This document shows positions 22,598-43,911 of a DNA stretch of 64,000 nucleotides, piece by piece. Location: the NCBI GenBank assembly GCA_027604705.1, contig JADHYV010000065.1, positions 38,652-102,651 of the forward strand, in the 5' to 3' direction. A program made the translations under genes and the position numbers. Under the pieces are notes generated by a model. The model made no database searches and had not been told where the DNA came from. It saw only the letters and a list, made by a program, of their open reading frames with translations. The number at the start of each line of letters is the position of its first letter. Position 1 is the stretch's first letter. Source of the stretch: Allomyces arbusculus. Lineage: Eukaryota > Blastocladiomycota > Blastocladiomycetes > Blastocladiales > Blastocladiaceae.

Positions 22598-22665
22598 CAG
22601 TGGGCATGCAGTGTTGCATACCTACCCACAGTGCTGGTTCAGGTTTGAATCCTGGACAGTATTTG
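22598..22665 (+). pseudogene. Decayed tRNA-Gly copy
   Basis: The segment GGTTCAGGTTTGAATCCTGG corresponds to GGCTCGGGTTCGAATCCCGG of the intact tRNA-Gly, differing by C-to-T or G-to-A at CpG-type positions. The 5' half (around GCATACCTACCCACAGTG) is further decayed and cannot fold. Confidence 0.55.
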
Positions 22666-23120
22666 AGCATGCAGTCAATGCAATTAGGTCAATCCTGCCC
22701 AACAGATATGCCTTCATGGGGACGCCTTTCTGTAACTGATTGACAATTTGGCCCTCACATGACTTGCACTGCCATTCTTCAGCTACCTAGCCTGAGCTCA
22801 AGACATTGAACAGATTCTGCTGTAACTCACAATACACATCATTGTTATGTCCTGGGCCCCTATTGGCCTTTTGCCTCTGGTACAACTTGCTAGCAGCCAC
22901 ACATGCTCTCCATCTCCAACTGTGCTTATTTGGCCACATGTGCATTGGGCTTGCCAGGAGCAGGCGCCAAATTGTACAAATGCTACCCACAACACCTTCT
23001 CTGTTGGTGTCATGGTCGTGACTACAGACATCGCCAGACGGTGTGGCGCAGCCAGCCAGACGCACTGTTGGGTCCCACATGTAACTGTTGCATCATAATC
23101 CAAACCAGTGCAGGTCTTCA

Positions 23121-23187
23121 GCACCATTGGCCCAGGGTAGGATACCACCCTCCCAAGGTGTTACACAGGTGCAAATCCCAGACGCTA
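23121..23187 (+). pseudogene. Decayed tRNA-Gly copy, anticodon arm preserved
   Basis: CAGGGTAGGATACCACCC followed by TCCCAAGGTG is identical to the D/anticodon part of the intact tRNA-Gly at 21616. The acceptor (GCACCATT for GCGCCGTT) and T arm (GTGCAAATCCCAGACG) carry CpG-loss changes and no longer pair. Confidence 0.7.
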
Positions 23188-23549
23188 TAGAGGGTTTATA
23201 TTCGCCCAAGTGCGCTGGGCATTGGTTCTTGAAGTTTTTGGATTGCTCTGAGGTTTTTTGCCTTATCATGTTCAATCCTCAGCAATGATTGAGTAAAATC
23301 GCTACTTCAAGGATTGGCGCCAGGTAATGCGTTGTGTCCTTTCTGCAGTGCATACTCGACGTTTGAAGCGCGCCTAATTACTCTTTTCCATGCCACAGCC
23401 GAGTTCAGGGAAGCAAACGGTTGGATTATCGCACACGACACGCATCATCATCAAGACTCGGGCTCATTTGGGCCCTACACTTGGCCCTACAATTCTGGTA
23501 TAGCTCAATTCGAGCGCACAACGCGCTCGTCTCCCTTCTCCAACAGTTC

Positions 23550-25667: not shown

Positions 25668-25672
25668 CAACT
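25668..25672. repeat. Target-site duplication, left copy (CAACT)
   Basis: CAACT directly precedes the element end TGGCGCC. The same five bases directly follow the other end (40556-40560). Confidence 0.85.
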
Positions 25673-26039
25673 TGGCGCCGACCTTGAGGTCAGCGCCACA
25701 TGTGCCCTAGGACCCTGCCCTAGGTCCAACCCTAAGTGAAAATGCTGTCCTAGGTCCAAGCGCTCCTGGACCACCACCTCCTTGAACACCCCACCGCGGC
25801 CACTACGATTACTTCTTCGGGCAGGGCTCTGGACATGCCCCTGTAAGCCTGGGGACCTGGGACAGGAGTCTGGGACCTAGGTCCATGGCCATTGGTGAAT
25901 GGGAATCGGGGATATGTACCGCGAGCATGTCTCAGAACGGGTGCTCGGGAAGGTTGGACAGGGAAAATGGACCTAGGAACATGGGTCTTGGACCTAGGTC
26001 CACGCGCGGGCAGCGCAGCTGCACTTAACCAGGGGGTTC
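25673..26039 (+). repeat. Left terminal inverted repeat (367 bp)
   Basis: Matches the reverse complement of 40189-40555 with no gaps. Differences are confined to the terminal palindrome loop and a 14-bp patch near 25979-25992. It begins with an imperfect palindrome (TGGCGCCGACC-TTGA-GGTCAGCGCCA) and contains six CCTAGG hexamers. Confidence 0.95.
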
Positions 26040-26113
26040 AGCGAATGGTTGGTGATGGGTTGGGGAGACGTTATGCAAATCCAATAACATGATACGAATT
26101 CCTGGAGACGTTT

Positions 26114-26216
26114 TGTGAATTTCAGAAAACGTTATGTGAATTTCAGGGGGCATATTGTGAATTTCCGACCTGGATGGCTCATTTTGTGAATATCGGGGAG
26201 GCATTCTGTGAATATC
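26114..26216. repeat. Iteron-like array, five TGTGAATWTC copies
   Basis: TGTGAATTTC or TGTGAATATC starts at 26114, 26135, 26156, 26185 and 26207, i.e. spaced 21, 21, 29 and 22 bp, just inside the left terminal repeat. Flanking bases (GACGTTT/AACGTTA/GGCATA/GGCATT) are partly conserved too. The near-helical spacing suggests a protein-binding array at a replication origin or promoter. Confidence 0.7.
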
Positions 26217-26339
26217 ATGGTCGGGGGTGGGTTGGAAAAAATCTCTCCAAGTGGTTACCCCAATTGTTCCTGAAATTGTGCTGTGAGGACTCTCAAAACC
26301 GTGGACACGACCTTGAAAATGGGACTGAGATGCGTCTCG

Positions 26340-26547
26340 ATTGGCCTCCCAGGCCTGTTTTTTGAGTGTCCACGCTGTCCACGGTTTTTGGGGGTATTTT
26401 GATAGGGTCCAGAAAAAAGGAGAAGGAGGGGTATATCCCTTGCAATACAACCCTTCCTCCTTTTTTTCTGGACCGATTTAAAACACCCCCAAAACCGTGG
26501 ACAGCGTGGACACTCAAAAAAAAGAGAATAGGTCCGGGAGGCCAATT
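26340..26547. repeat. 208-bp imperfect palindrome (hairpin)
   Basis: Left arm (26340-26430) from ATTGGCCTCCCAGG through GAGTGTCCACGCTGTCCACG to GGAGAAGGAGGG. The right arm (26451-26547) is its inverse, CCCTTCCTCC ... CGTGGACAGCGTGGACACTC ... GGGAGGCCAAT. The loop is about 20 nt. Lies between the iteron array and the 3' end of the replication gene. Confidence 0.85.
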
Positions 26548-26635
26548 GCCATTTTATTGAACTGTCTGTCACTCAAAATCGTGGCCATTTCAAGCCATCT
26601 CACGGTCAGTTTTAAGAACAATTGGGGTGAGCAAC

Positions 26636-28948
26636 TCACTCCTCATCATCTGAAAGGTCCATAGCCCCTGGCCCCAGGTATACCCACATGACCTCACGAT
26701 GGCCATTCACCCGAACCCGTTGCTTCATAAACAGCCGTGCATCACCACCACGCTGAAGGTCAATGGCATCCCGCAGATGCACACCAAAGGCGGTCATCGA
26801 AATGACATGGTGCCCTGGGAAGCGCTTCTGGACAAACTTCTGGTAGGTCTCATAGAGCTCCGTGCTTGACATGCTCTGCTCCACCTCCACCTCGCGGTTC
26901 TGCTCCATGAGGTTCCGCGGGAAACCACCATACTCGGTGATTTCCTGGAACAGCGCGGAGATAGGGTCAGCAGACGCCTCCACAATGGCATCACGGTCCT
27001 CATTCCGTGGGAAGTTGGCCAAGTCAATGTCGCTGAGGTCCACGTTGCAAAGGTACGTGAAAATCTTGTCGGCATTGGCCTTGACATACTCATCCAGATG
27101 GCGGAAGTACATGCGGTCGCAGCGGCGCTTGTTTGACACGTTCAGCACAAACACACGGCGGCCGGACTTGGTCAAAGGCAAGATGTTCTTGTTGTTTGAC
27201 GCAATCATAAAGTTGTTGACGTTCTTGACCTCGTAGCGACGAACGCACTTTTCGTTGATGATGGTCCGTGTGTCCGTGACCATGTTCTTGAGCCTGTCAA
27301 ACGCAGCCATCCGTTCACGACCATTGGACACTGGCATCTCGTCGAACAGCACCAGTGACTTGTTCTCAATCTCGGAGTTGAACGACCCGGCCAAGAACTG
27401 AGCGGCATTGTTGAGCGGCACACACAGCTTCTTGCCCAGCATGTACGTGGAAATTGACTCGAAGAGGAATCCCTTGCCCGCACCCTCGAGGCCAGTCAAA
27501 GCCAGCACCACACCATTCGCTGTGCCACTGGTGAAGAGCTCCTGCAGCCACTTGAGGACGAACTTGTACTCTGTCTCACGACCGCTGCAAATGACTTCAA
27601 GAATGTAGTCCAAGTACATGGACACCTCGTCCCGTGGAATCGTCTGCTTCAGGTTCGTGGCTGCAAACCCAGGGAACGCGTTGAAGTAGTCAATGTACTT
27701 CTTGCCCGAGCAAGGTCCCCACTGTGGCTTGTAGAAATCGAAGATGCGCTTCTTGATGATAGGCGCAAAGTCCTGGCCAATCGACGCCACCATGTCCACA
27801 GTGCCGTGCGAAACGTTCAGGCCCCAATCATCATCGACACATGCCCGGAAATAGAACATGCCGACAGTCAGGTCCTTGCGTAGGAACTCGCCAACATACG
27901 TGGACACGACCTGCTCCCACGAATCAGCATCATCGGCCTCCTTGCAGCGCTTCATGTGGTTAAGCACCTTGCGCACCCACTCCTCATCATAGTGCGTGTT
28001 CTCTTCAAGCTTGGCCTTGACAAACTCGTCGACATTTTCACAGCTCTCTGGGAAATCGCGCTTCTCGAGGTTTGCATCTTTCTTGAGTTCCTTTTCTGCC
28101 CATTTGATGTCGAACCCAGTCCGTTGGACCGTGTACTGGTGAAGCTCCTCCAGCAGCTCCTCGTTGACCTTGTCGTCCTTGACCACCATCAAACCGTCAA
28201 AGCACAGCACACTGGGGACGAGGTCACGTGCACGGAAGAACTCGACCGCCTCCATCAAAACGAGACTCTCGACCGCCTGAAAGACATTCGACATGAAGGA
28301 GCCCTTGTTGATGGTCGTCATGGTCCGTGTCTTTGAGGCTTGCAAGATGTTGGGATAATCAGCAGACAGTCGTGGATACGCAACCGTGTACAGCAAGTGG
28401 TGCATCTCCATGAGCTCAGGGTGGAGGGTGGTGTACAGGTGCTCGCTGAACATGATAGCGAGGAAGTCCGACTTTTCCTTGAGCTTGTACTTGGTCAGTG
28501 CCTGCTGGCGGTCCTCCAGGTATGTGTCCAACGCCTTGCTCTGGAGGTCATAGTGGGCCAGGATGCCCTTGAAGATGGAAGGAGCAGCAGCCACCATGTC
28601 GATATCCTGGAGCACCCCAGCTGCGAGGGCACCACGGGAATCCTTCTTCAGCGATTGCAGGGACACGCTGGTCGCATAAAGACGTCCAAACTCCTTGTTG
28701 CCCCGACGGTCCTTTGGGAAACAGTACACCGTCTCCTTGCCTTCCCCATAAGTCGATTGGAGAAGGGTCAAATAGGCCCGGAGCTTTTTCTTGAGGTCCT
28801 GGTGAACGCCAGAGTGCTTCTTGGAGAGGTCCTTGAGCACTTCCATGTTGACAAACTCGCGGAGGACAATGCGGCGAGTGTCATCGAATGGAGCCTTGTC
28901 AAGACGGTCCATGAATGCCTTGAGCTGGGTCGATGTGGCGTTCTCCAT
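26636..28948 (-). CDS. TVpol-like polymerase fused to SF3 helicase (replication protein)
   Basis: 770 residues, intact. The N-terminal half matches the transposon-virophage polymerase (TVpol, family-A-like) pattern: GRLYATSVSLQSL with R105, DIDMVAAAPSI (116-126, the usual DIDMVNxHP with the Asn-x-His changed) and FDGLM (250-254). The C-terminal half is a superfamily 3 helicase: Walker A GLEGAGKG (486-493), Walker B LVLFDEMP (533-539), motif C FMIASNNKN (580-588) and an arginine-finger region SGRRVFVLN. This fusion is known from virophages and PLVs and replaces the protein-primed polymerase of Polintons. It should prime, unwind and copy the element DNA. The missing His in the DIDM motif may affect polymerase activity. 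It is the only rightmost-to-left reading gene in the left arm. Confidence 0.85.
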   Translation of the reverse strand: MENATSTQLKAFMDRLDKAPFDDTRRIVLREFVNMEVLKDLSKKHSGVHQDLKKKLRAYLTLLQSTYGEGKETVYCFPKDRRGNKEFGRLYATSVSLQSLKKDSRGALAAGVLQDIDMVAAAPSIFKGILAHYDLQSKALDTYLEDRQQALTKYKLKEKSDFLAIMFSEHLYTTLHPELMEMHHLLYTVAYPRLSADYPNILQASKTRTMTTINKGSFMSNVFQAVESLVLMEAVEFFRARDLVPSVLCFDGLMVVKDDKVNEELLEELHQYTVQRTGFDIKWAEKELKKDANLEKRDFPESCENVDEFVKAKLEENTHYDEEWVRKVLNHMKRCKEADDADSWEQVVSTYVGEFLRKDLTVGMFYFRACVDDDWGLNVSHGTVDMVASIGQDFAPIIKKRIFDFYKPQWGPCSGKKYIDYFNAFPGFAATNLKQTIPRDEVSMYLDYILEVICSGRETEYKFVLKWLQELFTSGTANGVVLALTGLEGAGKGFLFESISTYMLGKKLCVPLNNAAQFLAGSFNSEIENKSLVLFDEMPVSNGRERMAAFDRLKNMVTDTRTIINEKCVRRYEVKNVNNFMIASNNKNILPLTKSGRRVFVLNVSNKRRCDRMYFRHLDEYVKANADKIFTYLCNVDLSDIDLANFPRNEDRDAIVEASADPISALFQEITEYGGFPRNLMEQNREVEVEQSMSSTELYETYQKFVQKRFPGHHVISMTAFGVHLRDAIDLQRGGDARLFMKQRVRVNGHREVMWVYLGPGAMDLSDDEE

Positions 28949-29078
28949 TGTTTCTTATATTTTGCTGAGGAAAAAAAAAGGAGGAATAACGCTCGCTTAA
29001 ATGCGTTTGAACGCATCGATAATCCAGCCGCATCGCAAATTAAGTCCTGGAATTCACAAATTGGTACGAATTAGAGAA

Positions 29079-29807
29079 ATGAACGACATCTACCTTGCAG
29101 ACCACGACAAACCCGAGATTTGCTACTGGTGTGCTGTCCCTGGAGACCAACAGCCGCTCAAATCACCTAATCGGCTCGTTAGACGGCTGTCTGCCTTGTT
29201 GAATATGCCTGTCGAAAAGGTTGAGCTGAAAATAAAGCTCGGGACCTTGCTGCAAGGTTTCAAACGCACTTCACACCGTGTAGCACCTGATGATAGTTTT
29301 CTGACGTGTCTGTGCGGAGTCCATGTCCAAGAGTTGTGGATTGTCGAAAATGGCACGGTGCGAATTGGCATTGGGACAAAGTGCATTGAACGGATTGACG
29401 AGGCCATGAGTGAAGAAGTCCAGAAATTAATCAGAGAACGTAACCGGAAGACATTTGACTGCATGCCCTGTGGAAAGCGCCACCCAAAAACACAGGGATG
29501 TCCACTCGACAAGAAGCCTGTCCAGATTCAAACGCGAACCCCGAGTCCACTGCCAGCCTACTCTCTAATGCCCCCAGTAAAAACGTGTGTCAAATGCTCA
29601 AAACCAAATTCGACCAAGTACGCCACATGTCAGCCATGCATGCAAAAAGCAAAGCATTGCGCGACAAAAGGATGCTCCAAGCTCGTGTTCAAGGAGGGTC
29701 ACCAGATTTGCTATCACTGCCACATTCAGGCGTCAGGTCCCACAAAACAGTGTCGCTGTGGCAAAATCATCAAGGCAACCTACAACAGATGCTTCCTTTG
29801 TAAGTAA
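29079..29807 (+). CDS. Cys-rich zinc-binding protein of the element
   Basis: 242 residues from the ATG at 29079 (upstream in-frame codons are in the divergent promoter region). The N-terminal part has CYWC, then CLCG followed about 30 residues later by GIGTKCIERID. This CxCG...IGxxC module resembles small zinc domains seen in DNA-virus proteins (resemblance only). The C-terminal third is a string of CxxC units (CVKC, CQPC, CATKGC, CYHC, CRCG, CFLC). Probably a nucleic-acid-binding or regulatory protein. Divergent from the replication gene with 130 bp between start codons. Confidence 0.65.
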   Translation: MNDIYLADHDKPEICYWCAVPGDQQPLKSPNRLVRRLSALLNMPVEKVELKIKLGTLLQGFKRTSHRVAPDDSFLTCLCGVHVQELWIVENGTVRIGIGTKCIERIDEAMSEEVQKLIRERNRKTFDCMPCGKRHPKTQGCPLDKKPVQIQTRTPSPLPAYSLMPPVKTCVKCSKPNSTKYATCQPCMQKAKHCATKGCSKLVFKEGHQICYHCHIQASGPTKQCRCGKIIKATYNRCFLCK

Positions 29808-29839
29808 TTCTCAAACGCGTTTTGGACCTAGGATTATTT

Positions 29840-29858
29840 TTCTTGTCCTAGGATAAAC
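29840..29858 (+). promoter_or_regulatory. Element promoter motif TTCTTG-N8-TAAAC before the recombinase-like gene
   Basis: TTCTTG (29840), 8-bp spacer containing CCTAGG, TAAAC, then ATG at 29863. A second CCTAGG lies just upstream at 29827. Confidence 0.7.
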
Positions 29859-29862
29859 AAAC

Positions 29863-31023
29863 ATGGAACATATTCTTCAGCAGCTTCTCGAGGGTCAGGC
29901 CATCATGATGAACCGCATTGCTCAGCTTGAACGTGGCATGGCAGTCATGACACAATTCGTCGAACGATTCCAGGCAGCCATGGGTGTGAAAGTCGAGGAA
30001 CCACCCCAGGAACTGCCTCTGGAACTGCCCCAGGACCAGCCCGAGGAAGTTATCGAGCTGCCCGTTGCCGATTTGGAATCAGAGATTGTGATTCAGGTAC
30101 ACGAACCACTCGAGGAATTCGTTTTCGAGCCGCTCCTCAAGGAGTACGTCCATGATGCCAATGACAAACCGTGCGAAAAGGCCACCAAGAAGCGCCGCGA
30201 AAATTTGCTGACGTGGTTCAAGGGCAATGTGTCGCAGATGAAAGGAAGTGAGGGGCTCGACATTGTCACCGAATGGTCACAGCTGTTTGACCTGATGAAC
30301 GTGCGTCAGCTAAAGGACACGGCCGCTGCCTTGAACAGCATCAAGCTGTCGGGCAAGCGTTTCTCGAACGTGGACATTGAGGACCTCCACCACCAGTGCC
30401 ATGAGCGGCGGAAAACCAAGGACAAGATGACCAGTGTGCTCAATGCAAAGAAGCCCCTGGTGGTGTCCCTTGACCAATGCAAAGCCTATGCTGCAACCGT
30501 CCCTGTCCAGCCATTGCCAGACGGTCTCCTGGCCATTTTCATTTCAGCTGCTGTGGGCCTGCGGTGTGACCCAGTGTACCTGACGTGTGCCAAGACCAAT
30601 GACTACCCCTACCTCAAAGTCGAGGGTGAGCACCTCTGGATGCGCGGTCCGATTATGAGCGCCAAGGCCAAGGACAAGGGGTACAACATCAATGTGCTCA
30701 TCGACCCAGCATTCGCCAGCCACATCACCGCCAGCGTCCAAGAGCGTGCCAAAACGGGCCAGAAATTTGTTTTTGCCGATTTGGTGGACGAGGACAAGGA
30801 CAAGAGCTTTGACCGCTATTCCAGACTCATCCGCACGGCATCTCAGAGCATTCCGGAGTTGAATGGCGCAAGTACTGTCGATTTCCGCAAGGCTCACGTG
30901 ACCCACGACCTGGGCCTGTACAAGCGCAACGCCATGACCTATGAGGAGCTCAATTCCCGGTTCTCTGCACGTGGGCACAGTCTGGCCGTGCTGGACCATT
31001 ACTACCGCCCGGACGCGGAATAG
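29863..31023 (+). CDS. Tyrosine-recombinase-like protein
   Basis: 386 residues. N-terminal coiled coil and acidic linker (1-90), a helical core-binding-like region (100-200), then a C-terminal part with the layout of a tyrosine recombinase catalytic domain: box I SAAVGLRCDPVYL (R234), TCAKTNDYPYLKV in the position of the beta-hairpin lysine, box II DFRKAHVTHDL (R342) and ARGHSLAVLDHYYRP (H372, Y380/Y381) at the very end. The R-R-H-Y spacing fits the family, but the sequence is divergent and the match is by eye. Such enzymes cut and rejoin DNA at specific sites. Alternative: an unrelated structural protein. Confidence 0.55.
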   Translation: MEHILQQLLEGQAIMMNRIAQLERGMAVMTQFVERFQAAMGVKVEEPPQELPLELPQDQPEEVIELPVADLESEIVIQVHEPLEEFVFEPLLKEYVHDANDKPCEKATKKRRENLLTWFKGNVSQMKGSEGLDIVTEWSQLFDLMNVRQLKDTAAALNSIKLSGKRFSNVDIEDLHHQCHERRKTKDKMTSVLNAKKPLVVSLDQCKAYAATVPVQPLPDGLLAIFISAAVGLRCDPVYLTCAKTNDYPYLKVEGEHLWMRGPIMSAKAKDKGYNINVLIDPAFASHITASVQERAKTGQKFVFADLVDEDKDKSFDRYSRLIRTASQSIPELNGASTVDFRKAHVTHDLGLYKRNAMTYEELNSRFSARGHSLAVLDHYYRPDAE

Positions 31024-31026
31024 ATT

Positions 31027-31045
31027 TTGTTGAGTTACTGTAAAG
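31027..31045 (+). promoter_or_regulatory. Element promoter motif (TTGTTG-N8-TAAAG) before the integrase
   Basis: Same two blocks and 8-bp spacing as at the other genes; the integrase ATG follows directly at 31046. The motif starts 4 bp after the preceding stop codon. Confidence 0.55.
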
Positions 31046-32326
31046 ATGGCCAAGAAGCAGTCCAAGGAACAAGACCATAGCAATGACCCAAATCGCCAGC
31101 CGCTGAGTGGACCCCAGGAGCTATTCTTGAAATGGTTGTATTATGAACGGTTTCCAGGCGCAGGGTACCATGCTCTGTACGAGGCAGTTGTGTGTGAGGC
31201 GCCATCGACTCTCCCCCACATTTACTGCAACCAGGTTCGGGAATGGCTGAACACACAGGAACTGTATCAGCGCAACAAGCAGCCCCCTCCCAAGCGCGAC
31301 ATTCGACGCATCCAGGCCACCTCTGTTTCGCGCGTCTACCAGCTGGACCTCATCGACATGGGCGAAGAGCGTATGTGGAAGGGCTTTCGCTATATTTTGA
31401 ACGTGGTGGACGTGGCCAGTCGCAAGCTGTTCCTGGAGCCACTCAAGAAAAAGACACAGGACACAGTGTACCTCGCATTCAAGAAAATCGCCAAGCATGA
31501 GCACTTTGGCAACAAGCCGACCATCCACATGGACAATGGCGGTGAATTCGCTGCGTTGAAACGCGACCCGAGCATTCGATGTGTGCTGGGCAAGCCCCAC
31601 GTACCCATGGGCCAGGGCATGGTCGAGTCGCTGAATAAACAGGTGCGGCGTTATGTCAACATGTATCTGCAGCAAGGCTACAATGATTGGCCCATGGCTA
31701 TCCCTCGATTCCAGGACTCGTTGAATTCTTTGTCGCGGAGAGGCACTGGCGGTCTGTCGGCCAATGAGGCTCACGAGATGCCCAAGGAAGAGTCCAAGGT
31801 ATATTTCGAGGAACTGAAAGCAAAACGAACGCGCAACGACGACCCGCTCAATGACAATTTGCTGCCACTCGGTGCCACTGTGCGCTACCGATTGCCATAC
31901 AAGAGTCAGCTGGAGAAAAAGAACATGCCCACGTACAGTGCCACGCTGCATACCATTGTTCAGCGTCGAAAAGGCACGGGCATCAGCAGTCCTTCGTATA
32001 AAATTTCAGACATGCCTCGGTGGTACAATGCCAGCGATTTGCAGGTCATCAAAAAGGTCGAGGCGTATGAACGTGAGAAGCGGCCTGTGGTGCAGCGCGT
32101 CAAGAACACTTCGAATGTGGTCATGGTCCCGGCTGAGCAGGTGCTGAGGCGCTCAGAGCGTCTCTGCAGCAAGCAAGCGCCAGAAGCAGCGCCAGTGGAG
32201 CCTGTCCCAGAGCCCGCCCCAGAGCCAGAAGAAGAAGAGCCATTCGTGCCACGTCGCTCAAAGCGTATCCAGAATAGGTTAGCGCAACAGGTAGAGACTC
32301 AGGGTAACATGAACGCCAACCGCTGA
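31046..32326 (+). CDS. Retroviral-type (rve) DDE integrase, Polinton-like
   Basis: 426 residues. RNase H-fold catalytic core with YQLDLIDM (D101), IHMDNGGEF (D163) and GQGMVESLNKQ (E194). A helical N-terminal region precedes it. The C-terminal region has a short beta-rich segment ending SDMPRWYNASDLQVIK, as in Polinton and Ty3/gypsy integrases, and a basic RRSKRIQNR tail. It would cut and join the terminal repeats into host DNA and accounts for the 5-bp target duplication. Its 3' end overlaps the convergent fibre gene by 48 bp. Confidence 0.9.
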   Translation: MAKKQSKEQDHSNDPNRQPLSGPQELFLKWLYYERFPGAGYHALYEAVVCEAPSTLPHIYCNQVREWLNTQELYQRNKQPPPKRDIRRIQATSVSRVYQLDLIDMGEERMWKGFRYILNVVDVASRKLFLEPLKKKTQDTVYLAFKKIAKHEHFGNKPTIHMDNGGEFAALKRDPSIRCVLGKPHVPMGQGMVESLNKQVRRYVNMYLQQGYNDWPMAIPRFQDSLNSLSRRGTGGLSANEAHEMPKEESKVYFEELKAKRTRNDDPLNDNLLPLGATVRYRLPYKSQLEKKNMPTYSATLHTIVQRRKGTGISSPSYKISDMPRWYNASDLQVIKKVEAYEREKRPVVQRVKNTSNVVMVPAEQVLRRSERLCSKQAPEAAPVEPVPEPAPEPEEEEPFVPRRSKRIQNRLAQQVETQGNMNANR

Positions 32327-34294: not shown

Positions 34295-34326
34295 GTGGAT
34301 TATTATATTCTATGCACAAAATTAAA

Positions 34327-34605
34327 ATGAACAGCTTCGAAGAACAGTTTGAGACACTGGATGAGGTCGGTGAGTACCTTGGTCTGCCCAAAGCCTTCTA
34401 TGACCTCGATGATGGGGCCAAGGAGGCCTACATTGACCGCTACATGAAGGAGAAGCAAAAGAAGCTGCGCCGGTACCGGTTTGTCAAGGACACCACAGAC
34501 CAGGACCGTGCCTCAGCAGTCCATGACCGAATGCATCTCAAACTAAAGAAACGTGAGTTGGAGCGGGAGAGGGTCCAGTTGAACATGCTCCTTGGACTTG
34601 CTTGA
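34327..34605 (+). CDS. Small charged helical protein of the element
   Basis: 92 residues from the ATG at 34327. Acidic start (FEEQFETLDEVGEYLGLP), then a strongly basic helix (KEKQKKLRRYRF ... KLKKRELERERVQLN). Unknown family. TTCTAT-N9-TAAAA precedes the ATG, a weak form of the element promoter. It lies first in the rightward capsid module, so it may be a capsid-associated or DNA-condensing protein; that is inference. Confidence 0.55.
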   Translation: MNSFEEQFETLDEVGEYLGLPKAFYDLDDGAKEAYIDRYMKEKQKKLRRYRFVKDTTDQDRASAVHDRMHLKLKKRELERERVQLNMLLGLA

Positions 34606-34612
34606 ATTTTAT

Positions 34613-34631
34613 TTCTTGGTCTTAGTTAAAC
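34613..34631 (+). promoter_or_regulatory. Element promoter motif TTCTTG-N8-TAAAC before the 541-residue gene
   Basis: TTCTTG GTCTTAGT TAAAC, ending 14 bp before the ATG at 34646. The motif begins 8 bp after the stop codon of the preceding gene. Confidence 0.75.
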
Positions 34632-34645
34632 ATTTTCAACCAAAC

Positions 34646-36271
34646 ATGCCTCCCAAGGGTGCTAAACAGAGGGACACTGAAGCCCGCAAGGAGATTATCC
34701 GGAAAATCCTTGCAGAAAATGCTGATGTTATTGAGCCTTATAAGGATGGTACTGGTTTTCGCATTCTTAGAACAACACGGAAGAGGGATTATCAATCATC
34801 CGTGTCCTGGTTCCTGCGCGACCTGATGCGATACTTCAGGTCAATCAAGCGCCAGCCACTTCGGAGTGATGAAGACATGAGGACACTCAACGAAATTGTG
34901 TCACAACTTCGTCCCATGAAACACCAGGGAGACGGCGAGTTTATCAAAGACTCTGAGCTTGGTGAGGACAACATGGACGTGGACAACAATGCAGAGGACG
35001 ATGGCGGGCGGCCGTACATTGAAATCTCAAGCAATGAGGACGACGAACCAGATGATGCAAACCCCAATGCAGGTGAGCAATATCCCCCTCCTGATGACAT
35101 GCGGGTGACGCGTGGACGTGCACAGCCTGAGATTGTCATTGAAGTGCCCCGTCCAGATATGCAAATGGTGCCCGCTAACCGCTCTCTCCCTCCCGTCGTT
35201 GCTCCAGGTGGGCAAATGGTACCTGTAGACCCCTCTCTCCCTCCCATCCTTGCTCGCCAAATGGCAGAGGAACCGCCCACTGCTCTTGTGCCTGTGCCGG
35301 ACGATTATGAGCGAGCAGTATCAACCGCACGAAACAACAATGGTGTCGCCGGCCCAGTGGGTGCACACTGGAACCCAACAGTGGGTGGCAATCACCAGGC
35401 AGTCATGCTCGCACAGCAGAACAACACCCTGAACCAGCAGAACATCCAGAACAACCTTACGCAGAACAATCTCATGCAGAACACACTCAACCAGCAGAAC
35501 ATCCAGAATATCCAGAACATCATTCAGACATACCCAGGCATCGAACCAGCACTCGCCACACTGTTCCAGGGCATCCAAGCCACATTCCTCAATGTCAGTG
35601 AGCGCAACGATGCACTCCTGCAAGCCCTGAATGGCCTGGAGATGGAACTCAAGGCAGAGGGTGGGAACACTGCCCAGCTTGCAAGCCAGTACGTCCAAGA
35701 GCAGCTTGACCGCTTTACAAGTGAGCAAACAGTGCAAAACTTTGAAAACAATCGCGAGATTAAGGACAACAAGGCGCGAATCAACAAGATTGGGCTCATT
35801 ACAGAAGCACTCGCAGATGGGCAATCTTTGATGCAGGCAACGCTCGAGCAAGTCCCTGAGCAGCTCTCGAGCCTCCCTGGTCGTGTCATTGACGCTCTCA
35901 ACCAGTCAGCCAATAACCCCCTCAACAAGTTGTCAGGCATCCTCGAACAGGCGCAGAACACGGTGGAGGTCATTGGTGCCAATGGTGGGAGCCGTGGTGG
36001 TGAAGGAGATGGTGGTCCAGGTCTCCAGGAGCAGAAGATGATGAACGACATGCTCAAGCAAATTGCCAGTGCACTTAATAAGACCCCTCGCATGCCATGG
36101 GACGACAAGCCACGCACTGTCGACAACTACTTTGCCACTGTTCCCCGTTTCCGCAAGAACCCACGTGCGCCTTTCACAGTGCCAGCAAAGGTTGGGGCGC
36201 GTGTCATCAAACCACAGGGACCAAAGGTCTACTATGTCCCACAAGGCTTTGGTGGTGTCCAGGACAAATAA
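34646..36271 (+). CDS. Large helical, Q/N-rich structural protein of unknown function
   Basis: 541 residues. Basic N-terminal domain (about 1-110, with SSVSWFLRDLMRYFRSIKR), an acidic/proline-rich linker, a Gln/Asn repeat section (NQQNIQNNLTQNNLMQN, duplicated), a long helical region, and a conserved-looking C-terminus (NYFATVPRFRKNPRAPF). Placed directly before the packaging ATPase, where PLVs often carry large variable proteins. Could be an internal scaffold or a DNA-associated minor virion protein. No family recognised. Confidence 0.6.
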   Translation: MPPKGAKQRDTEARKEIIRKILAENADVIEPYKDGTGFRILRTTRKRDYQSSVSWFLRDLMRYFRSIKRQPLRSDEDMRTLNEIVSQLRPMKHQGDGEFIKDSELGEDNMDVDNNAEDDGGRPYIEISSNEDDEPDDANPNAGEQYPPPDDMRVTRGRAQPEIVIEVPRPDMQMVPANRSLPPVVAPGGQMVPVDPSLPPILARQMAEEPPTALVPVPDDYERAVSTARNNNGVAGPVGAHWNPTVGGNHQAVMLAQQNNTLNQQNIQNNLTQNNLMQNTLNQQNIQNIQNIIQTYPGIEPALATLFQGIQATFLNVSERNDALLQALNGLEMELKAEGGNTAQLASQYVQEQLDRFTSEQTVQNFENNREIKDNKARINKIGLITEALADGQSLMQATLEQVPEQLSSLPGRVIDALNQSANNPLNKLSGILEQAQNTVEVIGANGGSRGGEGDGGPGLQEQKMMNDMLKQIASALNKTPRMPWDDKPRTVDNYFATVPRFRKNPRAPFTVPAKVGARVIKPQGPKVYYVPQGFGGVQDK

Positions 36272-36273
36272 TT

Positions 36274-36292
36274 TTCAGCGTAAAGAGTAACC
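36274..36292 (+). promoter_or_regulatory. Element promoter motif, weak form, before the ATPase
   Basis: TTCAGC-N8-TAACC immediately before the ATG at 36293; same spacing, weaker first block. Confidence 0.4.
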
Positions 36293-37081
36293 ATGTTCAC
36301 TGTGAAAGCACTTGACAACCAGGCCCACCGAGGGGGTCCCTATTTGGTCCCCAAGATACCAGCAACAGTGTGTATGTTGGGGCCCAAAGCAGCGGGCAAG
36401 TCCACGACGGCCCTCAACATGATTTTGTCACCGCAGTGTTGGCAACACTGTTTCTCGAAAATTTACGTCTTTTCGCCCACCTCGCACCTTGACCCAAAGT
36501 GGCAACAGCTTACTGAAACGCCTGTCCTCAAACACGACCCAAAAGCCCCCTACAACCCAGAGCTGCTCGCCGTGTCGCGTGACTGCTTCATTCACGAGGT
36601 GGACGAAATGGAGGCCAAATTAAAGGAAATCGCCATGCTCCAGGACCCGGAGAAGCGCGACTTTACAAAGCATCCTGGGACCATTGACAACATTCTTATT
36701 GTGCTGGATGACATTGCAGGCACCAAGTTTGCCCGCTCGCGCTTCCTCGACAGCTTCATTGCACTGTCGCGCCATCGAAAGTGCTCCATGATTATGTCAG
36801 TGCAGCTGTTCAAGGCCATTTCCCCACTTGCTCGCAATAACATGTCATACTATGTGCTATTTGAGACGTACAATAAAAACGAGTTGCGGACCATTTACGA
36901 TGCATGTGGAGGCCCATTCACGTGGGAAGAGTTTCTGGCAGTGTGCAACGAAATTTTTGCAACACCACATGCCACGTTGAACATCAACATGCAGAATCCA
37001 GGCGTCAGGTATCGTTACAACAATTCATTCCACTCGTTTATTATGCGAGAACAGCATCAACAGGAAGACGAATACTCGTAA
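36293..37081 (+). CDS. A32/FtsK-HerA-type DNA packaging ATPase
   Basis: 262 residues. Walker A MLGPKAAGKSTTA (G30-S37), Walker B NILIVLDDIAG (133-143), then SRHRKCSMIMSVQLFKAIS where the family has its sensor region. The segment KIYVFSPTSHLDPKW is typical of the poxvirus A32-like clade found in PLVs, virophages and Polintons. It should pump genomic DNA into the preformed capsid. Sits directly upstream of the major capsid gene, the usual order in this lineage. Confidence 0.9.
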   Translation: MFTVKALDNQAHRGGPYLVPKIPATVCMLGPKAAGKSTTALNMILSPQCWQHCFSKIYVFSPTSHLDPKWQQLTETPVLKHDPKAPYNPELLAVSRDCFIHEVDEMEAKLKEIAMLQDPEKRDFTKHPGTIDNILIVLDDIAGTKFARSRFLDSFIALSRHRKCSMIMSVQLFKAISPLARNNMSYYVLFETYNKNELRTIYDACGGPFTWEEFLAVCNEIFATPHATLNINMQNPGVRYRYNNSFHSFIMREQHQQEDEYS

Positions 37082-37087
37082 TTTTTT

Positions 37088-37106
37088 TTCTTGTGACTTT
37101 GTAAAC
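37088..37106 (+). promoter_or_regulatory. Element promoter motif TTCTTG-N8-TAAAC before the major capsid gene
   Basis: A T8 run leads into TTCTTG TGACTTTG TAAAC; the ATG follows 8 bp later at 37115. Confidence 0.75.
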
Positions 37107-37114
37107 ACCCCAAC

Positions 37115-38428
37115 ATGACTTCACCCGTGACTAACTTTGCCAATGTTCTCCCGACGTCACTTGGCAAGGAGATGATTTACACTCCGCCCAAGCAGGCGCC
37201 AGTTGCTGACCGCACGACCATCAAATTCCCGTGCACACAGGGTTCTGCATTCTCTGCATCTGGCAATGGTCTTGGTTCGACCATCCGTTTCCAGATTCCG
37301 GCTGTGAACAAGATTGTGGACTTGTCGGCTGGTGTGCATTTTTCGTTCAAGGCCTCGACGTACAAGGATGCAGCGTGCACTCAGCCCACGACTGCTGGTG
37401 CTCCAGAGACATACTTTACCGAAGGTATCCACTCGTGTGTTCAACGCCTTCGTGTGCTTAGTTCCTCTGACCAATTGCTTGAAGACATTGATGTGTATGG
37501 CTTACTTTCACGGATGTTGAGTGATGCCACTGTCCCATCCGCGCTCAAGACCACAGTGCTATCAATTGGCCAGGGCTATGGCGACCCTGTGCACCGCTCA
37601 GGCTCAAACCGCCAGTTCATGTTCCCACTGCACTCTGCTCTCCTGACCCAGGACCGCTGGCTCAACCTCAAGCACACTTCAGGCCTCATCATTGAAATTA
37701 CGCTCACTGAGCCCAAGGCTTGCATGATTAACACCACGGGCACAGTTGGTGGCTATGTGGTCAGTGAGCCATACCTTATGGTCGACACAGTGACCCCCCA
37801 CGCTGCCCAGCTTGCTCAACTCGATGCTGCATGGGCCTCAGCTGGTGGCGTCATGTTCACTGGTACCACGTGGGCATGCAAGACTCCTGCCTTTGTCACC
37901 CCCACAGGCTCGATTGTCGTGTCGGACCGTCACAGCATGCAGAAATGCATCCTTGCAGCATTCCGCACGCCCCAGTACCATGGCAAGGCCAACGTGGACC
38001 CCTTGGCTCGCGGTCTGCCCATCACGAGTTACCAAATCAAGAACGCCGATGAGATGGTCCAGCTGCGTCCCATTGACTGCACAGGCTATGCCCCAGAGGC
38101 CCTGCATGAGCTTGAGGTCTTTGCAAAGGGCCACACCGTTGGTGAACTGACACCTGCCAAGTGGATTGACCGTGGCAATGTCTCAGGCGGCGCGTTTGTG
38201 CCACCTCAGGGTCAGTTCATCCTTGCACGCACTTTTGAGACCTCCTCCCTCATCTCAGGTTCAGACAAGGCCAAGAAGTCGGGTGTCGACCTTGAGATTC
38301 TCACGACTGGTGACCCTTTCCCAGTTGACAACACCCTTGGCACTGTTGCCTATCGCTGCGATGTCTTTGTTGGCTACGTGACCTCGATTTCCTTCAATGC
38401 TGACGGCTCAGTGGATGTCTTCAATTAA
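37115..38428 (+). CDS. Major capsid protein (double jelly roll)
   Basis: 437 residues. Beta-rich with the pattern of PLV capsid proteins: an N-terminal GSTIRFQIP / FSFKAS strand set, YGDPVHRSGSNRQFMFPLHS, the LLTQDRWLNLKHTSGLIIEI segment that marks the end of the first barrel, and a second barrel ending TSISFNADGSVDVFN. Position between the ATPase and penton genes supports the call. It would form pseudo-hexameric capsomers of an icosahedral shell. The length is rather short for a double jelly roll, but PLV capsid proteins of this size occur. Confidence 0.82.
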   Translation: MTSPVTNFANVLPTSLGKEMIYTPPKQAPVADRTTIKFPCTQGSAFSASGNGLGSTIRFQIPAVNKIVDLSAGVHFSFKASTYKDAACTQPTTAGAPETYFTEGIHSCVQRLRVLSSSDQLLEDIDVYGLLSRMLSDATVPSALKTTVLSIGQGYGDPVHRSGSNRQFMFPLHSALLTQDRWLNLKHTSGLIIEITLTEPKACMINTTGTVGGYVVSEPYLMVDTVTPHAAQLAQLDAAWASAGGVMFTGTTWACKTPAFVTPTGSIVVSDRHSMQKCILAAFRTPQYHGKANVDPLARGLPITSYQIKNADEMVQLRPIDCTGYAPEALHELEVFAKGHTVGELTPAKWIDRGNVSGGAFVPPQGQFILARTFETSSLISGSDKAKKSGVDLEILTTGDPFPVDNTLGTVAYRCDVFVGYVTSISFNADGSVDVFN

Positions 38429-38430
38429 TT

Positions 38431-38450
38431 TTCTTGATAGATAGTTAAAC
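38431..38450 (+). promoter_or_regulatory. Element promoter motif TTCTTG-N9-TAAAC
   Basis: TTCTTG ATAGATAGT TAAAC between the capsid stop and the ATG at 38459. Confidence 0.75.
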
Positions 38451-38458
38451 CCCCTCCC

Positions 38459-38713
38459 ATGAACATCCGCTCAATCTGGACCTCATTCAAGCTTGCCCTT
38501 GCAGCTTATGGGCATCACCTCATGAACAACTTCAAGAACATTACTTATGGTATTCGTGAGGTAGCCCGTTTTGCAGCTGTCATTCCTCCACTGGCTGGTC
38601 CTGCTGCATTTGTGGCCAGTGCCACCAACATTGCAGATGACATCTATGACCTCTTTGACGCATGGTCAGGTACAAGCCCCTCGGACAGTGGTGGAACAGC
38701 AGGAGGCGTGTAA
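38459..38713 (+). CDS. Small amphipathic/hydrophobic element protein
   Basis: 84 residues with its own promoter motif. Begins with a helical, basic section (IRSIWTSFKLALAAYG) and has a hydrophobic stretch (FAAVIPPLAGPAAFVASATN) and a Gly/Ser tail. Position between the major capsid and penton genes suggests a minor virion component, possibly membrane-active or cementing. Function not recognised. Confidence 0.6.
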   Translation: MNIRSIWTSFKLALAAYGHHLMNNFKNITYGIREVARFAAVIPPLAGPAAFVASATNIADDIYDLFDAWSGTSPSDSGGTAGGV

Positions 38714-38718
38714 ATTTT

Positions 38719-38737
38719 TTCTCAGATAGCTTTAAAT
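38719..38737 (+). promoter_or_regulatory. Element promoter motif TTCTCA-N8-TAAAT before the penton gene
   Basis: The TAAATG block overlaps the start codon at 38736. Confidence 0.6.
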
Positions 38738-39518
38738 GTCAGTCCCTCGCATCAAATATATCACCGTGTGCTCCAAGGACCTGGAGAATGGGGTCTCATG
38801 GCGCCTCCCACGTGCCATCCAGACCCGGGGCATTCGAGTGGTCAGTGCCATGATTCCCAACACATGGTACAACATCACTGAGAGTAACAATGTACTCTAT
38901 ATCCGTGGCAAGAATGGCAGCTATTTTGATGGTGGGGCTGTGGTGCCCCCTGCATATTACACTCCACAATCACTCTGCGACAAGCTTACAGAACAGCTCA
39001 ACAACAACAATGCTGAATTTCACTGGACAGGGACGTGGTCCGTGACCTGGAACTCGGCCACTGGTCGTGTCACCATCGCCAACAATGGAATGACATTCCG
39101 TATTCTCCGCATCAACAAGCCCAATAGCATTCACCGAAACCTCGGATTTGGCACTGAGCCTTGGTCGGACGATAGTTTGAATATTGCAAATGAAGGCTAT
39201 TCATTGACTGGTGATTACGCCATCGGCCTTGCCCGCATTGAGACGATTCACCTCAAGTCCAACCTCGGGACCATGTTGGCAGACTACACCCACTCGTCCT
39301 TTCCCAATGTTGGCTCACTCGTGGCGTCTTTCCATGTGCAGGGCGGTTGGGGTCAATCATTCGTATACCAGAACTCGTCTAGTGAATTCTTCAACTTTGA
39401 TTCGAAAGCCATCACTGAGGAAGTCACGGAGATTGAGCTTGAACTGTGTGATGACAAGCTGCGACCCATCAACTTTAATGGCCACAACTGGACCATCCAG
39501 CTCGCGTTCCTGACCTAA
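38736..39518 (+). CDS. Penton (minor capsid) protein, single jelly roll
   Basis: 260 residues. Starts VSWRLPRAIQ...IRVVSAMIPNTWYNI and has the diagnostic YYTPQSLCDKLTEQLN helix-strand element followed by TGRVTIANNGMTFRI, as in penton proteins of PLVs, virophages and Polintons. The C-terminal strand region ends NGHNWTIQLAFLT. It should occupy the fivefold vertices, where the fibre probably attaches. Confidence 0.82.
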   Translation: MSVPRIKYITVCSKDLENGVSWRLPRAIQTRGIRVVSAMIPNTWYNITESNNVLYIRGKNGSYFDGGAVVPPAYYTPQSLCDKLTEQLNNNNAEFHWTGTWSVTWNSATGRVTIANNGMTFRILRINKPNSIHRNLGFGTEPWSDDSLNIANEGYSLTGDYAIGLARIETIHLKSNLGTMLADYTHSSFPNVGSLVASFHVQGGWGQSFVYQNSSSEFFNFDSKAITEEVTEIELELCDDKLRPINFNGHNWTIQLAFLT

Positions 39519-39531
39519 TGAAAATTTATTT

Positions 39532-39550
39532 TTGATTGTATATAGTAAAT
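39532..39550 (+). promoter_or_regulatory. Element promoter motif TTGATT-N8-TAAAT
   Basis: Ends in TAAATG overlapping the ATG at 39549 of the spliced membrane protein gene. Confidence 0.55.
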
Positions 39551-39885
39551 GCTCGGCTTTGAAGTTGCGATTCTGTGCGTGAACATCGCCATCCTCCTGT
39601 CGCAGTTTGCCATCATTGGCTACAATGCCCGCCACAACAAGGGCCGCAAATTTAATCGTGAGTAAGTCTAAACGCAAACGCACATGTGCCTCGTTTTTTT
39701 ATTCAGACTCAAAGACAAAGGCAATGAAGGTTCTCGGGGCGTCAACTCAAAACCTCCACGGGCAGGAGCCAAAGACAGTGGAGCAACCACCCAGAACAAC
39801 CAACCAGAGAACCCAGCCAGTCTTCCCTACAGCAGTCCGCGTACAGCTCAAGCCCGGCGAAGTCTACCGCCTATCCTTTAACTAA
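39549..39885 (+). CDS. Small single-span membrane protein, apparently spliced
   Basis: Unspliced, the ATG at 39549 gives 38 residues (one transmembrane helix, VAILCVNIAILLSQFAIIGY, then a basic end). A GT-AG intron at 39658-39706 (49 nt; 5' site GTGAGTAAGT, CTAAAC in a branch-site position, 3' T7 tract and TTCAG) joins 39549-39657 to 39707-39885 in frame. That extends the protein to 95 residues with a disordered Thr/Pro/Gln-rich tail ending RVQLKPGEVYRLSFN. The downstream frame alone has no good promoter motif. The splice site quality is better than in most host introns here. The function may be virion membrane or entry related; this is inference. Confidence 0.65.
39658..39706 (+). other. Candidate spliceosomal intron inside a viral gene
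   Basis: GTGAGTAAGT at the 5' end, polypyrimidine CGTTTTTTTATTCAG at the 3' end, phase 1. Removing it keeps one open frame across both exons. Confidence 0.65.
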
Positions 39886-39933
39886 CCGTGTCTCGCACAC
39901 TGCACGGAAACCATTCGTGCAATGTGTATTCAT

Positions 39934-40131
39934 TCATTCATATCGTGGAGGTGGTGGAGGGTCATTTTCGTGGCGTGTCCAGTTGGAGCGGGCTACAACG
40001 ACAATGGTCCCACAAACGTTGCAGAGGTACTCGACGTATATCACAAAGTTGGGCACGCGCGTGCACCATTTGGCTGGTCTTGTGCAGATGCAGCCGTTCT
40101 GCGTTTGGTTTGAAGTGTTCATGGTGTTCAT
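39934..40131 (-). CDS. Small Cys-rich protein with PPPPPRYE tail
   Basis: 65 residues on the minus strand: CICTRPAKWC, then CNVCG, then a C-terminal RHENDPPPPPRYE. The Cys pattern suggests a single zinc ribbon or redox site. It is supported as real by a full promoter motif upstream on its own strand (TTCTTT-N9-TAAAC). Lies between the membrane-protein gene and the right terminal repeat, convergent with the capsid module. Confidence 0.6.
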   Translation of the reverse strand: MNTMNTSNQTQNGCICTRPAKWCTRVPNFVIYVEYLCNVCGTIVVVARSNWTRHENDPPPPPRYE

Positions 40132-40132
40132 G

Positions 40133-40152
40133 GTTTAGGAGATGGCAAAGAA
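40133..40152 (-). promoter_or_regulatory. Element promoter motif TTCTTT-N9-TAAAC (minus strand)
   Basis: TAAACC directly abuts the start codon at 40131. Its presence on the opposite strand argues that the motif is a true promoter and not a spacer relic. Confidence 0.6.
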
Positions 40153-40188
40153 AACTTTGGTGACTTCCCAAAAAGGAACGAGCACAAA

Positions 40189-40555
40189 GAACCCCCTGGT
40201 TAAGTGCAGCTGCGCTGCCCGCGCGTGGACCTAGGTCCCAGACACACATTCCTAGGTCCATTTTCCCTGTCCAACCTTCCCGAGCACCCGTTCTGAGACA
40301 TGCTCGCGGTACATATCCCCGATTCCCATTCACCAATGGCCATGGACCTAGGTCCCAGACTCCTGTCCCAGGTCCCCAGGCTTACAGGGGCATGTCCAGA
40401 GCCCTGCCCGAAGAAGTAATCGTAGTGGCCGCGGTGGGGTGTTCAAGGAGGTGGTGGTCCAGGAGCGCTTGGACCTAGGACAGCATTTTCACTTAGGGTT
40501 GGACCTAGGGCAGGGTCCTAGGGCACATGTGGCGCCGACCTTGAGGTCGGCGCCA
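40189..40555 (-). repeat. Right terminal inverted repeat (367 bp)
   Basis: Reverse complement of 25673-26039 with about seven mismatches and no gaps. Ends in the perfect palindrome TGGCGCCGACC-TTGA-GGTCGGCGCCA at 40530-40555. Confidence 0.95.
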
Positions 40556-40560
40556 CAACT
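40556..40560. repeat. Target-site duplication, right copy (CAACT)
   Basis: Directly follows the element end and matches 25668-25672. Confidence 0.85.
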
Positions 40561-43500: not shown

Positions 43501-43911
43501 GACAAGGTGTGGGACGCTGAGTCGCACATATTTGTGGACGTTGTCGCGATTCGCAACGTGACGTGCCGAGGCGTCTACTCTCCCGTGCCGGCGTGCTCTG
43601 GGACTCTGATCGTCGACGGCGTGCTTGCGAGCGTCTACGCCAAGCCAACGGCGTTCCAGGTGGTGGACGTTGCTGACACGCTCGTGCACACGATTTCGCA
43701 CTGGGCGACGTACCCGCTGCGCACCGCGTGGGCGCTAGGACTCGTGGTGGACAAGGTGCTGGACTCGGTTCTCCACCACTTTGCGTGCACGTCGGGGCCG
43801 AGTCGCGGCAAGGCGCTGTCGCGTGCAGAGCCGACGCCTCCTTGGTTGCTCCCGTACCTGAAGCTCGTCGTCGGGGGGCTCGTCGCTGTCTTGTCGCGTG
43901 TTGTTGGCTAG
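40560..43911 (+). CDS. GBP/atlastin-like GTPase with C-terminal Hedgehog-type Hint (Hog) domain
   Basis: Main exon 40985-43911; upstream exons 40560-40691 and 40726-40916 are tentative, and the original start was probably left of the insertion (25636). Counting residues from codon 40975, the G domain has P-loop GVLGNLREGKST (148-158), DFEGFGD and the GBP/atlastin signature LVLRDFALD (R308-D309). A helical middle and a coiled coil (REKEAQEAMQ ... EMEKVTREHAEAL) follow. Then GGGCFPGSAHVEV (C744) opens a Hint domain with TPNHLVFI (H816) and SGTLIVDGVLASVYA, followed by HTISHWATYPLRTAWAL as in Hedgehog C-termini, and a terminal hydrophobic helix. Known Hog domains self-cleave and attach sterol to the upstream part; here that would lipid-anchor a membrane-remodelling GTPase. 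Confidence 0.85.

What the first reader, a model, noticed from the sequence alone, without database searches (positions are those of the whole stretch)
25673..40555. Intact polinton-like virus integrated in a fungal-type genome
Seen: complete 367-bp inverted repeats, CAACT duplication, and intact frames for capsid, penton, packaging ATPase, TVpol-SF3 helicase, rve integrase, fibre and small proteins. Known: this gene set defines PLVs/virophages, mostly described from algae and other protists. Inference: the copy is recent or still active, because its repeats are nearly identical, no main frame is broken, and it lacks the CpG decay seen at 21.7-23.3 kb. PLVs in fungi are little described, so this may be a new lineage.
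Basis: partly seen in the sequence, partly recalled or inferred. Interest (0 to 1): 0.88.

Follow-up and report, generated by a model that had tools for sequence, protein, structure and literature searches.

The report
Complete small-virus genome inside a fungus
A water fungus carries in its chromosome a complete, apparently intact small DNA virus of a kind known mainly from algae and other protists; relatives were already noticed in a sister species, so it is a well-preserved new member of a known kind rather than a new kind.

Summary
Window 25673-40555 is a 14,883-bp insertion with 367-bp inverted repeats (360 of 367 identical), a CAACT duplication and 12 main open frames: TVpol-SF3 helicase, rve integrase, A32-type ATPase, fibre, capsid and penton candidates among them. 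Host: Allomyces arbusculus, a blastoclad fungus. Best reading: an integrated Polinton-like virus (PLV). Remnants, repeat ends and a diverged 14.9-kb relative in the assembly, and a 99% identical helicase in A. macrogynus, argue against contamination. PLV genes were already reported in A. macrogynus and a PLV in Spizellomyces (Bellas & Sommaruga 2021), so PLVs in fungi are not new. The capsid candidate has only two other relatives in a 5.8-billion-protein search. New detail: CpG deamination accounts for most differences in the three closest A. macrogynus helicases; repeat ends are 26-bp palindromes; CCTAGG occurs six times per repeat and twice in one promoter, never in 49 kb of flank; virion genes show dN/dS 0.24. 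The assembly also holds a giant-virus stretch, a possible helper; a shared promoter was not established. The capsid fold could not be tested (structure prediction failed). 'Lacks CpG decay' is only relatively true.

The parts
25668..25672 (.). target site duplication CAACT, left
25673..26039 (+). left terminal inverted repeat, 367 bp
   Evidence: 360 of 367 identical to right
25673..25698 (.). outermost 26-bp palindrome of left repeat (11 of 13 mirrored pairs)
25706..25998 (.). six CCTAGG sites in left repeat (starts 25706, 25719, 25749, 25876, 25972, 25993)
26355..26524 (.). large imperfect inverted repeat (80-nt arms, 78%) between left repeat and helicase gene
26636..28948 (-). TVpol-SF3 helicase, 770 aa
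   Evidence: Pfam DUF5906; PDB 'Primase' chains 6k9c/6k9e; A. macrogynus copy 99%; TVpol name of the N-terminal part recalled
29001..29807 (+). 268-aa protein, Cys-rich towards its end by eye, function unknown
   Evidence: no Pfam hit
29827..29852 (.). two CCTAGG sites (29827, 29847) just before the 386-aa gene, the only two inside the element outside the repeats
29863..31023 (+). 386-aa protein, proposed repeat-end-binding protein; possibly a tyrosine recombinase relative (motif recalled, not confirmed)
   Evidence: counterpart in C182, 24.5% over 200 aa; no credible profile hit
31046..32326 (+). rve integrase, 426 aa
   Evidence: Pfam rve 33.3 bits
32279..34294 (-). fibre protein, 671 aa, with repeats
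   Evidence: Pfam Av_adeno_fibre 23.8 bits; C182 counterpart
34312..34605 (+). 97-aa protein with counterpart in C182
34646..36271 (+). 541-aa protein, part with counterpart in C182
36293..37081 (+). A32-type packaging ATPase, 262 aa
   Evidence: Pfam Pox_A32; 53% to C182
37115..38428 (+). major capsid protein candidate, 437 aa
   Evidence: position; relatives; fold not tested
38459..38713 (+). 84-aa protein between capsid and penton candidates, counterpart in C182
38736..39518 (+). penton (minor capsid) candidate, 260 aa
   Evidence: Pfam DUF5901 28 bits; 40% to C182
39625..39885 (+). 86-aa protein
   Evidence: matched in remnant copies C32 and C11; no match in C182
40189..40555 (-). right terminal inverted repeat, 367 bp, six CCTAGG sites (starts 40230, 40251, 40347, 40474, 40504, 40517)
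40530..40555 (.). outermost 26-bp palindrome of right repeat (12 of 13 mirrored pairs)
40556..40560 (.). target site duplication CAACT, right

Best explanation
An integrated Polinton-like virus of Allomyces, complete at the level of its genes. Shown: the insertion, its repeats and target duplication, the intact gene set, relatives in the same and sister species, and purifying selection on virion-candidate genes. Inferred: the rve integrase inserts linear viral DNA and leaves the 5-bp duplication; TVpol-SF3 replicates the genome; the A32-type ATPase packages it into an icosahedral capsid built of the 437-aa and 260-aa proteins; fibres attach the particle to zoospores or other cells. The 386-aa protein is proposed to bind CCTAGG in the repeat ends and before its own gene, coupling end processing to its own expression. 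After integration, copies decay to a large part by CpG deamination, which fits host cytosine methylation; the lineage persists because fresh copies spread from a slowly changing source.
For: TIRs and TSD. Pfam and PDB family matches. Of the 12 window proteins 10 have a counterpart (E 1e-7 or better) in the same order on contig C182 at 24-53% amino-acid identity. Remnants with genes on C32 and C11 and repeat ends alone on C111, C94, C48. Helicase copies in A. macrogynus and A. javanicus. dN/dS 0.236 over 370 codons of capsid end, 84-aa gene and middle of the penton gene against C32. CpG transitions explain 5 of 6, 13 of 22 and 38 of 55 amino-acid differences to the three closest A. macrogynus helicases, against 16 of 108 and 7 of 210 for the next two relatives. 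PF00145 cytosine-methylase matches in the genome. CCTAGG: 6 in the left TIR against a shuffle mean of 0.20, 6 in the right, 0 in 49 kb of flank (shuffles 1.72 + 1.50), both interior copies 16 and 36 bp before one start codon.
Against: No profile, PDB or structural support that the 437-aa protein is a double jelly roll (structure jobs failed). The CpG excess is not seen in the capsid (3 of 26 against P0002) or ATPase (0 of 2 against P0004) comparisons. The 268-aa and 86-aa proteins have no counterpart in C182, and the C182 integrase match holds a TAA. The number of interior CCTAGG sites is not above shuffles (2 against 1.22), and the link to the 386-aa gene is positional only. No expression, particle or free-genome evidence. 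Host divergence between the Allomyces species was not measured, so 99% helicase identity cannot be called horizontal spread.
Confidence: 0.87

Rival explanations
1. Virophage-like satellite (an addition to the best explanation, not its opposite): the PLV depends on the giant virus whose genes lie on contig C22 of the same assembly, shares its transcription signals, and may protect the fungus against it.
For: NCLDV capsid matches at C22:93.7 kb and 311.9 kb, with RNR small subunit, DNA ligase, A32-type ATPase and a helicase near the second. The C22 rve integrase is 30-31% identical to the PLV's. Fibre repeats match C22 fibre-like proteins at up to 85 bits against 57 bits for the best of 3 phage records (low-complexity filter on). 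A TAAAC-type motif is enriched before genes of both: 4 of 12 PLV and 11 of 44 giant-virus genes against shuffle means 0.84 and 2.41.
Against: The PLV's stronger motif (ATTTT, gap, TAA; 7 of 12 window genes, shuffle mean 0.63) is in 2 of 12 C182 genes (0.45) and 1 of 44 giant-virus genes (0.68). The giant-virus motif ATCGAT occurs once in the window PLV, no more than shuffles; in C182 it is over-represented (19 against about 4) but scattered through genes. TAAAC is at background in C182 (1 of 12). Fibre repeats and integrases move between viruses. Motifs were chosen after looking at the sequences.
Confidence: 0.2
2. A transposon-like or domesticated relic that no longer makes particles and moves, if at all, only inside the genome.
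For: CpG depletion of the whole element; broken siblings in A. arbusculus (helicase piece with TGA and TAG on C11; penton in three pieces on C32) and decayed helicases in A. macrogynus; no known particle.
Against: The 12 main frames are intact; capsid and penton candidates under purifying selection; fibre and packaging genes kept, also in the diverged C182 relative.
Confidence: 0.2
3. Assembly join or contaminating virus.
For: GC 0.529 against 0.619-0.645 in the flanks.
Against: Exact TSD at both ends; related remnants or repeat ends on five other contigs; A. macrogynus helicase relatives on contigs up to 3.1 Mb.
Confidence: 0.02

Closest known systems
PLV genes of Allomyces macrogynus (Bellas & Sommaruga 2021, PMC7805220; passages read)
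   Same: Same genus; MCP, ATPase and DNA helicase reported there. Here a capsid relative (AMAG_17996; 93% of aligned columns; 82% over the query) and a 99% identical helicase (AMAG_17811) are found in A. macrogynus.
   Different: In the passages read that report gives no complete element with repeats for Allomyces; here ends, TSD, copy inventory and decay pattern are described in A. arbusculus. That their MCP is AMAG_17996 was not checked.
TVpol-S3H PLVs such as PgVV, PLV-YSL1, PLV-RED1 (Yutin et al. 2015, PMC4642659; passages read)
   Same: TVpol fused to SF3 helicase; TIRs and capsid genes.
   Different: Their sequences were not at hand, so no tree was made; here an rve integrase accompanies TVpol-SF3.
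Cryptophyte PLVs (PMC12220804; abstract start and passages read)
   Same: TIRs of hundreds of bp, TSDs of about 4-6 bp, lineage-specific expansion, TVpol-S3H widespread.
   Different: Host is a fungus; copy number here is low: one complete, one near-complete relative, two gene-bearing remnants, three repeat ends (the tool's counts are lower bounds).
Polintons/Mavericks
   Same: rve integrase, TIRs, ATPase and capsid-type cassette.
   Different: No family B polymerase match in 12 of 12 main frames.

Membership tests
Polinton-like viruses | 14-40 kb element with TIRs of hundreds of bp | tested here: met
   14,883 bp, 367-bp TIRs; range from PMC12220804
Polinton-like viruses | short target site duplication | tested here: met
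   CAACT
Polinton-like viruses | A32/FtsK-type packaging ATPase | tested here: met
   Pox_A32, 34.6 bits; C182 homologue 51.3 bits
Polinton-like viruses | double jelly-roll major capsid protein | tested here: inconclusive
Polinton-like viruses | single jelly-roll penton protein next to MCP | tested here: inconclusive
   position and DUF5901 match; no PDB sequence match of note; fold not tested
Polinton-like viruses | replicase such as TVpol-SF3 helicase | tested here: met
   SF3 part: DUF5906, PDB 6k9c/6k9e; the TVpol naming of the N-terminal part is recalled from motifs, not from a profile hit
Polinton-like viruses | integrase (rve or tyrosine recombinase) | tested here: met
   rve
[quoted passage not shown]
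   no such Pfam match in 12 of 12 main frames; small frames were not scanned
Virophages (Maveriviricetes) | virophage-type MCP and maturation cysteine protease | tested here: inconclusive
   no such Pfam match in 12 of 12 main frames, but whether Pfam models these families well enough was not checked
Virophages (Maveriviricetes) | dependence on a giant virus | not testable with these tools
   giant-virus genes co-resident; promoter comparison inconclusive

The most novel reading that the evidence does not exclude
Allomyces hosts a three-party system of fungus, giant virus and PLV, in which the PLV is an integrated satellite that shares attachment fibres with the giant virus; its linear genome ends in self-complementary palindromes processed by the 386-aa CCTAGG-binding protein.
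Probability: 0.13. Interest if true: 0.85.

Novelty: new member of a known kind. Interest (0 to 1): 0.5.

Why it matters
Capsid-bearing PLVs are known mainly from protists, and the large 2023 survey left fungi out (PMC10120064, passages read). A well-preserved copy in a fungus that, from recall, can be grown in the laboratory, beside a giant-virus stretch in the same assembly, makes the question of fungal PLV/giant-virus interplay testable from sequencing data. The A. macrogynus helicases give a clear picture of how integrated copies decay through CpG deamination.

Tried and rejected
IMG/VR scans with capsid (two queries), ATPase, TVpol, penton and a distant TVpol: 0 relatives in 6 of 6 scans; the patterns were short and specific, so a miss is weak evidence.

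Flip-flop hairpin ends: the TG/CA difference at the palindrome centre looked like terminal inversion, but an ancestral CpG mutated on either strand explains it equally well, so it is not claimed. Two mirrored pairs that differ between C111 and the right end (positions 3/24 and 6/21, by my reading) are changed on both sides and are not CpG changes; they support only that the palindrome is maintained. The pair 7/20 in C11 is explained by CpG changes.

The 7 TIR differences are not used as a clock: 3 lie in the terminal palindrome and 4 in a 10-bp patch (308-317); 17 CpGs are intact in both arms and one is left only in the right. No date is given.

Tyrosine recombinase for the 386-aa protein: C-terminal motif resemblance is recalled; no credible profile or PDB hit. 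Shared PLV/giant-virus promoter: see rivals. The rRNA search for the host did not complete three times and became unnecessary.

Literature searches on which statements about what is in print rest: (open-licence PMC only; listings seen, and passages of the papers named).

Full report
Observation. The window holds a 14,883-bp insertion, 25673-40555, bounded by 367-bp inverted repeats with 7 differences and by CAACT on each side. The lengths of twelve main frames sum to 12,900 bp. Pfam names rve integrase, DUF5906 helicase, Pox_A32 ATPase and, weakly, fibre and DUF5901 domains. The helicase part also matches solved primase chains 6k9c and 6k9e at about 1e-24.

Host. The capsid candidate is 96% identical, over 100% of the query, to GGF31_007594 of Allomyces arbusculus on a contig of 102,651 bases, the length of the window's own contig C65. 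The database protein lacks an 18-residue stretch of the frame, probably a mistaken intron call, since C182, P0002 and P0003 keep that stretch. A. arbusculus is a blastoclad fungus.

Copies. In the same assembly: C182, a 14,871-bp contig with counterparts of 10 of the 12 proteins in the same order (ATPase 53%, capsid 48-50%, penton 40%, 84-aa protein 39%, rve 35%, others 24-28%), no match to the window's TIR, no match to the 268-aa and 86-aa proteins, and a TAA inside its integrase match; remnants on C32 (capsid end, 84-aa gene, penton in pieces, 86-aa gene, repeat) and C11 (penton end, 86-aa gene, helicase end with stops, repeat); repeat ends alone on C111, C94 and C48. The tool calls its counts lower bounds. 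C182 has no host flank and GC 0.427, so its origin, integrated, free or foreign, is open. Its helicase groups with those of C22 and A. javanicus and not with the window's, on long branches.

Relatives elsewhere. Capsid: 3 proteins at E<=1e-3 of 6,951 candidates in a 5.8-billion database, one of them the window's own. ATPase: one of 1,940 candidates, from A. javanicus. Helicase: 18 of 8,000 scored candidates (a capped list), of which 12 are from A. macrogynus or A. javanicus, one is the A. arbusculus C22 protein and 5 are unnamed. The word-based search misses distant kin. Six IMG/VR scans gave none. In the phage collection the helicase has matches in 173 records, in the 20 listed within residues 399-734, and the capsid none.

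Decay and selection. For each difference between the window protein and a relative I asked whether C-to-T or G-to-A at a CpG of the window codon gives the other residue. Helicase: P0005 5 of 6, P0006 13 of 22, P0007 38 of 55; then P0009 16 of 108, P0008 7 of 210, P0010 10 of 256, P0011 8 of 269, P0012 6 of 215, P0013 6 of 397, P0014 9 of 406. Capsid: P0002 3 of 26, P0003 0 of 217. ATPase: P0004 0 of 2. P0015-P0022 were not put through this test. So the three nearest A. macrogynus copies look like descendants of a very similar sequence that decayed mainly at CpG, while older divergence follows other substitutions. The genome has cytosine-methylase matches (PF00145, 11 exon-level matches, two of them on C22). 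Window against C32 gives dN/dS 0.236 over 370 codons (0.148 capsid end, 0.218 84-aa gene, 0.29 middle of penton; the frame-shifted ends of the C32 penton and codons with stops were left out), so virion-candidate genes were under purifying selection somewhere on the path between the copies. The element's own CpG depletion (0.72), with 17 intact CpGs shared by both repeat arms, suggests that much of that depletion predates this insertion; this is inference.

Ends. The outermost 26 bp form a palindrome: 12 of 13 mirrored pairs in the right end, C111 and C48, 11 in the left, 10 in C11; C32 and C94 do not keep it and were not in the count. C111 differs from the right end at two mirrored pairs with complementary changes. 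CCTAGG occurs 6 times in each arm; shuffles of the left arm average 0.20 and none of 400 reaches 6. It is absent from 49 kb of flank, where shuffles predict about 3. The interior has two, no more than shuffles predict in number (mean 1.22; 136 of 400 reach 2), but both lie within 40 bp before the 386-aa gene. Given two sites, both falling within 45 nt before the same one of 12 starts has chance about 1e-4 by a rough calculation. This is the basis for proposing that gene as the end-binding protein.

Giant virus. Contig C22 (333,850 bp) has NCLDV capsid matches at 93.7 and 311.9 kb and, in the part fetched (243-333.85 kb), dense long frames at GC 0.48-0.53 as far as about 321 kb, with RNR small subunit, DNA ligase, A32-type ATPase and capsid. 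C22 below 243 kb was not read. PLV and C22 share fibre repeats and distant integrases. The promoter comparison is mixed and post hoc.

Prior knowledge. Bellas & Sommaruga 2021 reported PLV MCP, ATPase and helicase genes in A. macrogynus and an integrated PLV in S. punctatus, and suggested fungal hosts from chitinase genes (passages). A D5 primase-helicase in A. macrogynus was earlier taken as NCLDV (PMC5294986, passages). The 2023 survey excluded fungi (PMC10120064, passages). Hence the verdict: real, well preserved, a new member of a known kind, with some new detail on ends and decay and one open question, the capsid fold.

Noticed in passing
G000 contig C22 (L022, L023, L031-L036; capsid matches at C22:93.7 kb and 311.9 kb): A long giant-virus stretch in the A. 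arbusculus assembly with two NCLDV major capsid matches, RNR small subunit matched in two stretches, DNA ligase, A32-type ATPase, helicase-methyltransferase fusion and very long fibre-like proteins.
   Followed up: partly
C22 243-317 kb: ATCGAT is rare overall but lies within 100 nt before 12 of 44 giant-virus genes (expected 0.91), a likely promoter element.
   Followed up: partly
window 21700-23300: Patch with CpG observed/expected 0.19 and TpG/CpA 1.68/1.86, a strongly deaminated-looking sequence just after a tRNA-Gly gene at 21616-21686.
   Followed up: no
window 41083-43911: Host gene just downstream encodes a guanylate-binding-protein GTPase domain joined to a Hint (hedgehog/intein) module.
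   Followed up: no
L020 5849-8599: The C182 fibre ends in a Peptidase_S74 chaperone domain with no such match in the window's fibre: fibre tips seem to be exchanged between relatives.
   Followed up: partly
window 26355-26524: 80-nt imperfect inverted repeat between left TIR and the helicase 3' end; origin or transcript-end hairpin possible.
   Followed up: no
window, 50 nt before PLV genes: ATTTT, gap 6-22, [AGT]TAA[AC] lies before 7 of 12 PLV genes (shuffle mean 0.63; pattern chosen after inspection), a candidate late promoter.
   Followed up: partly
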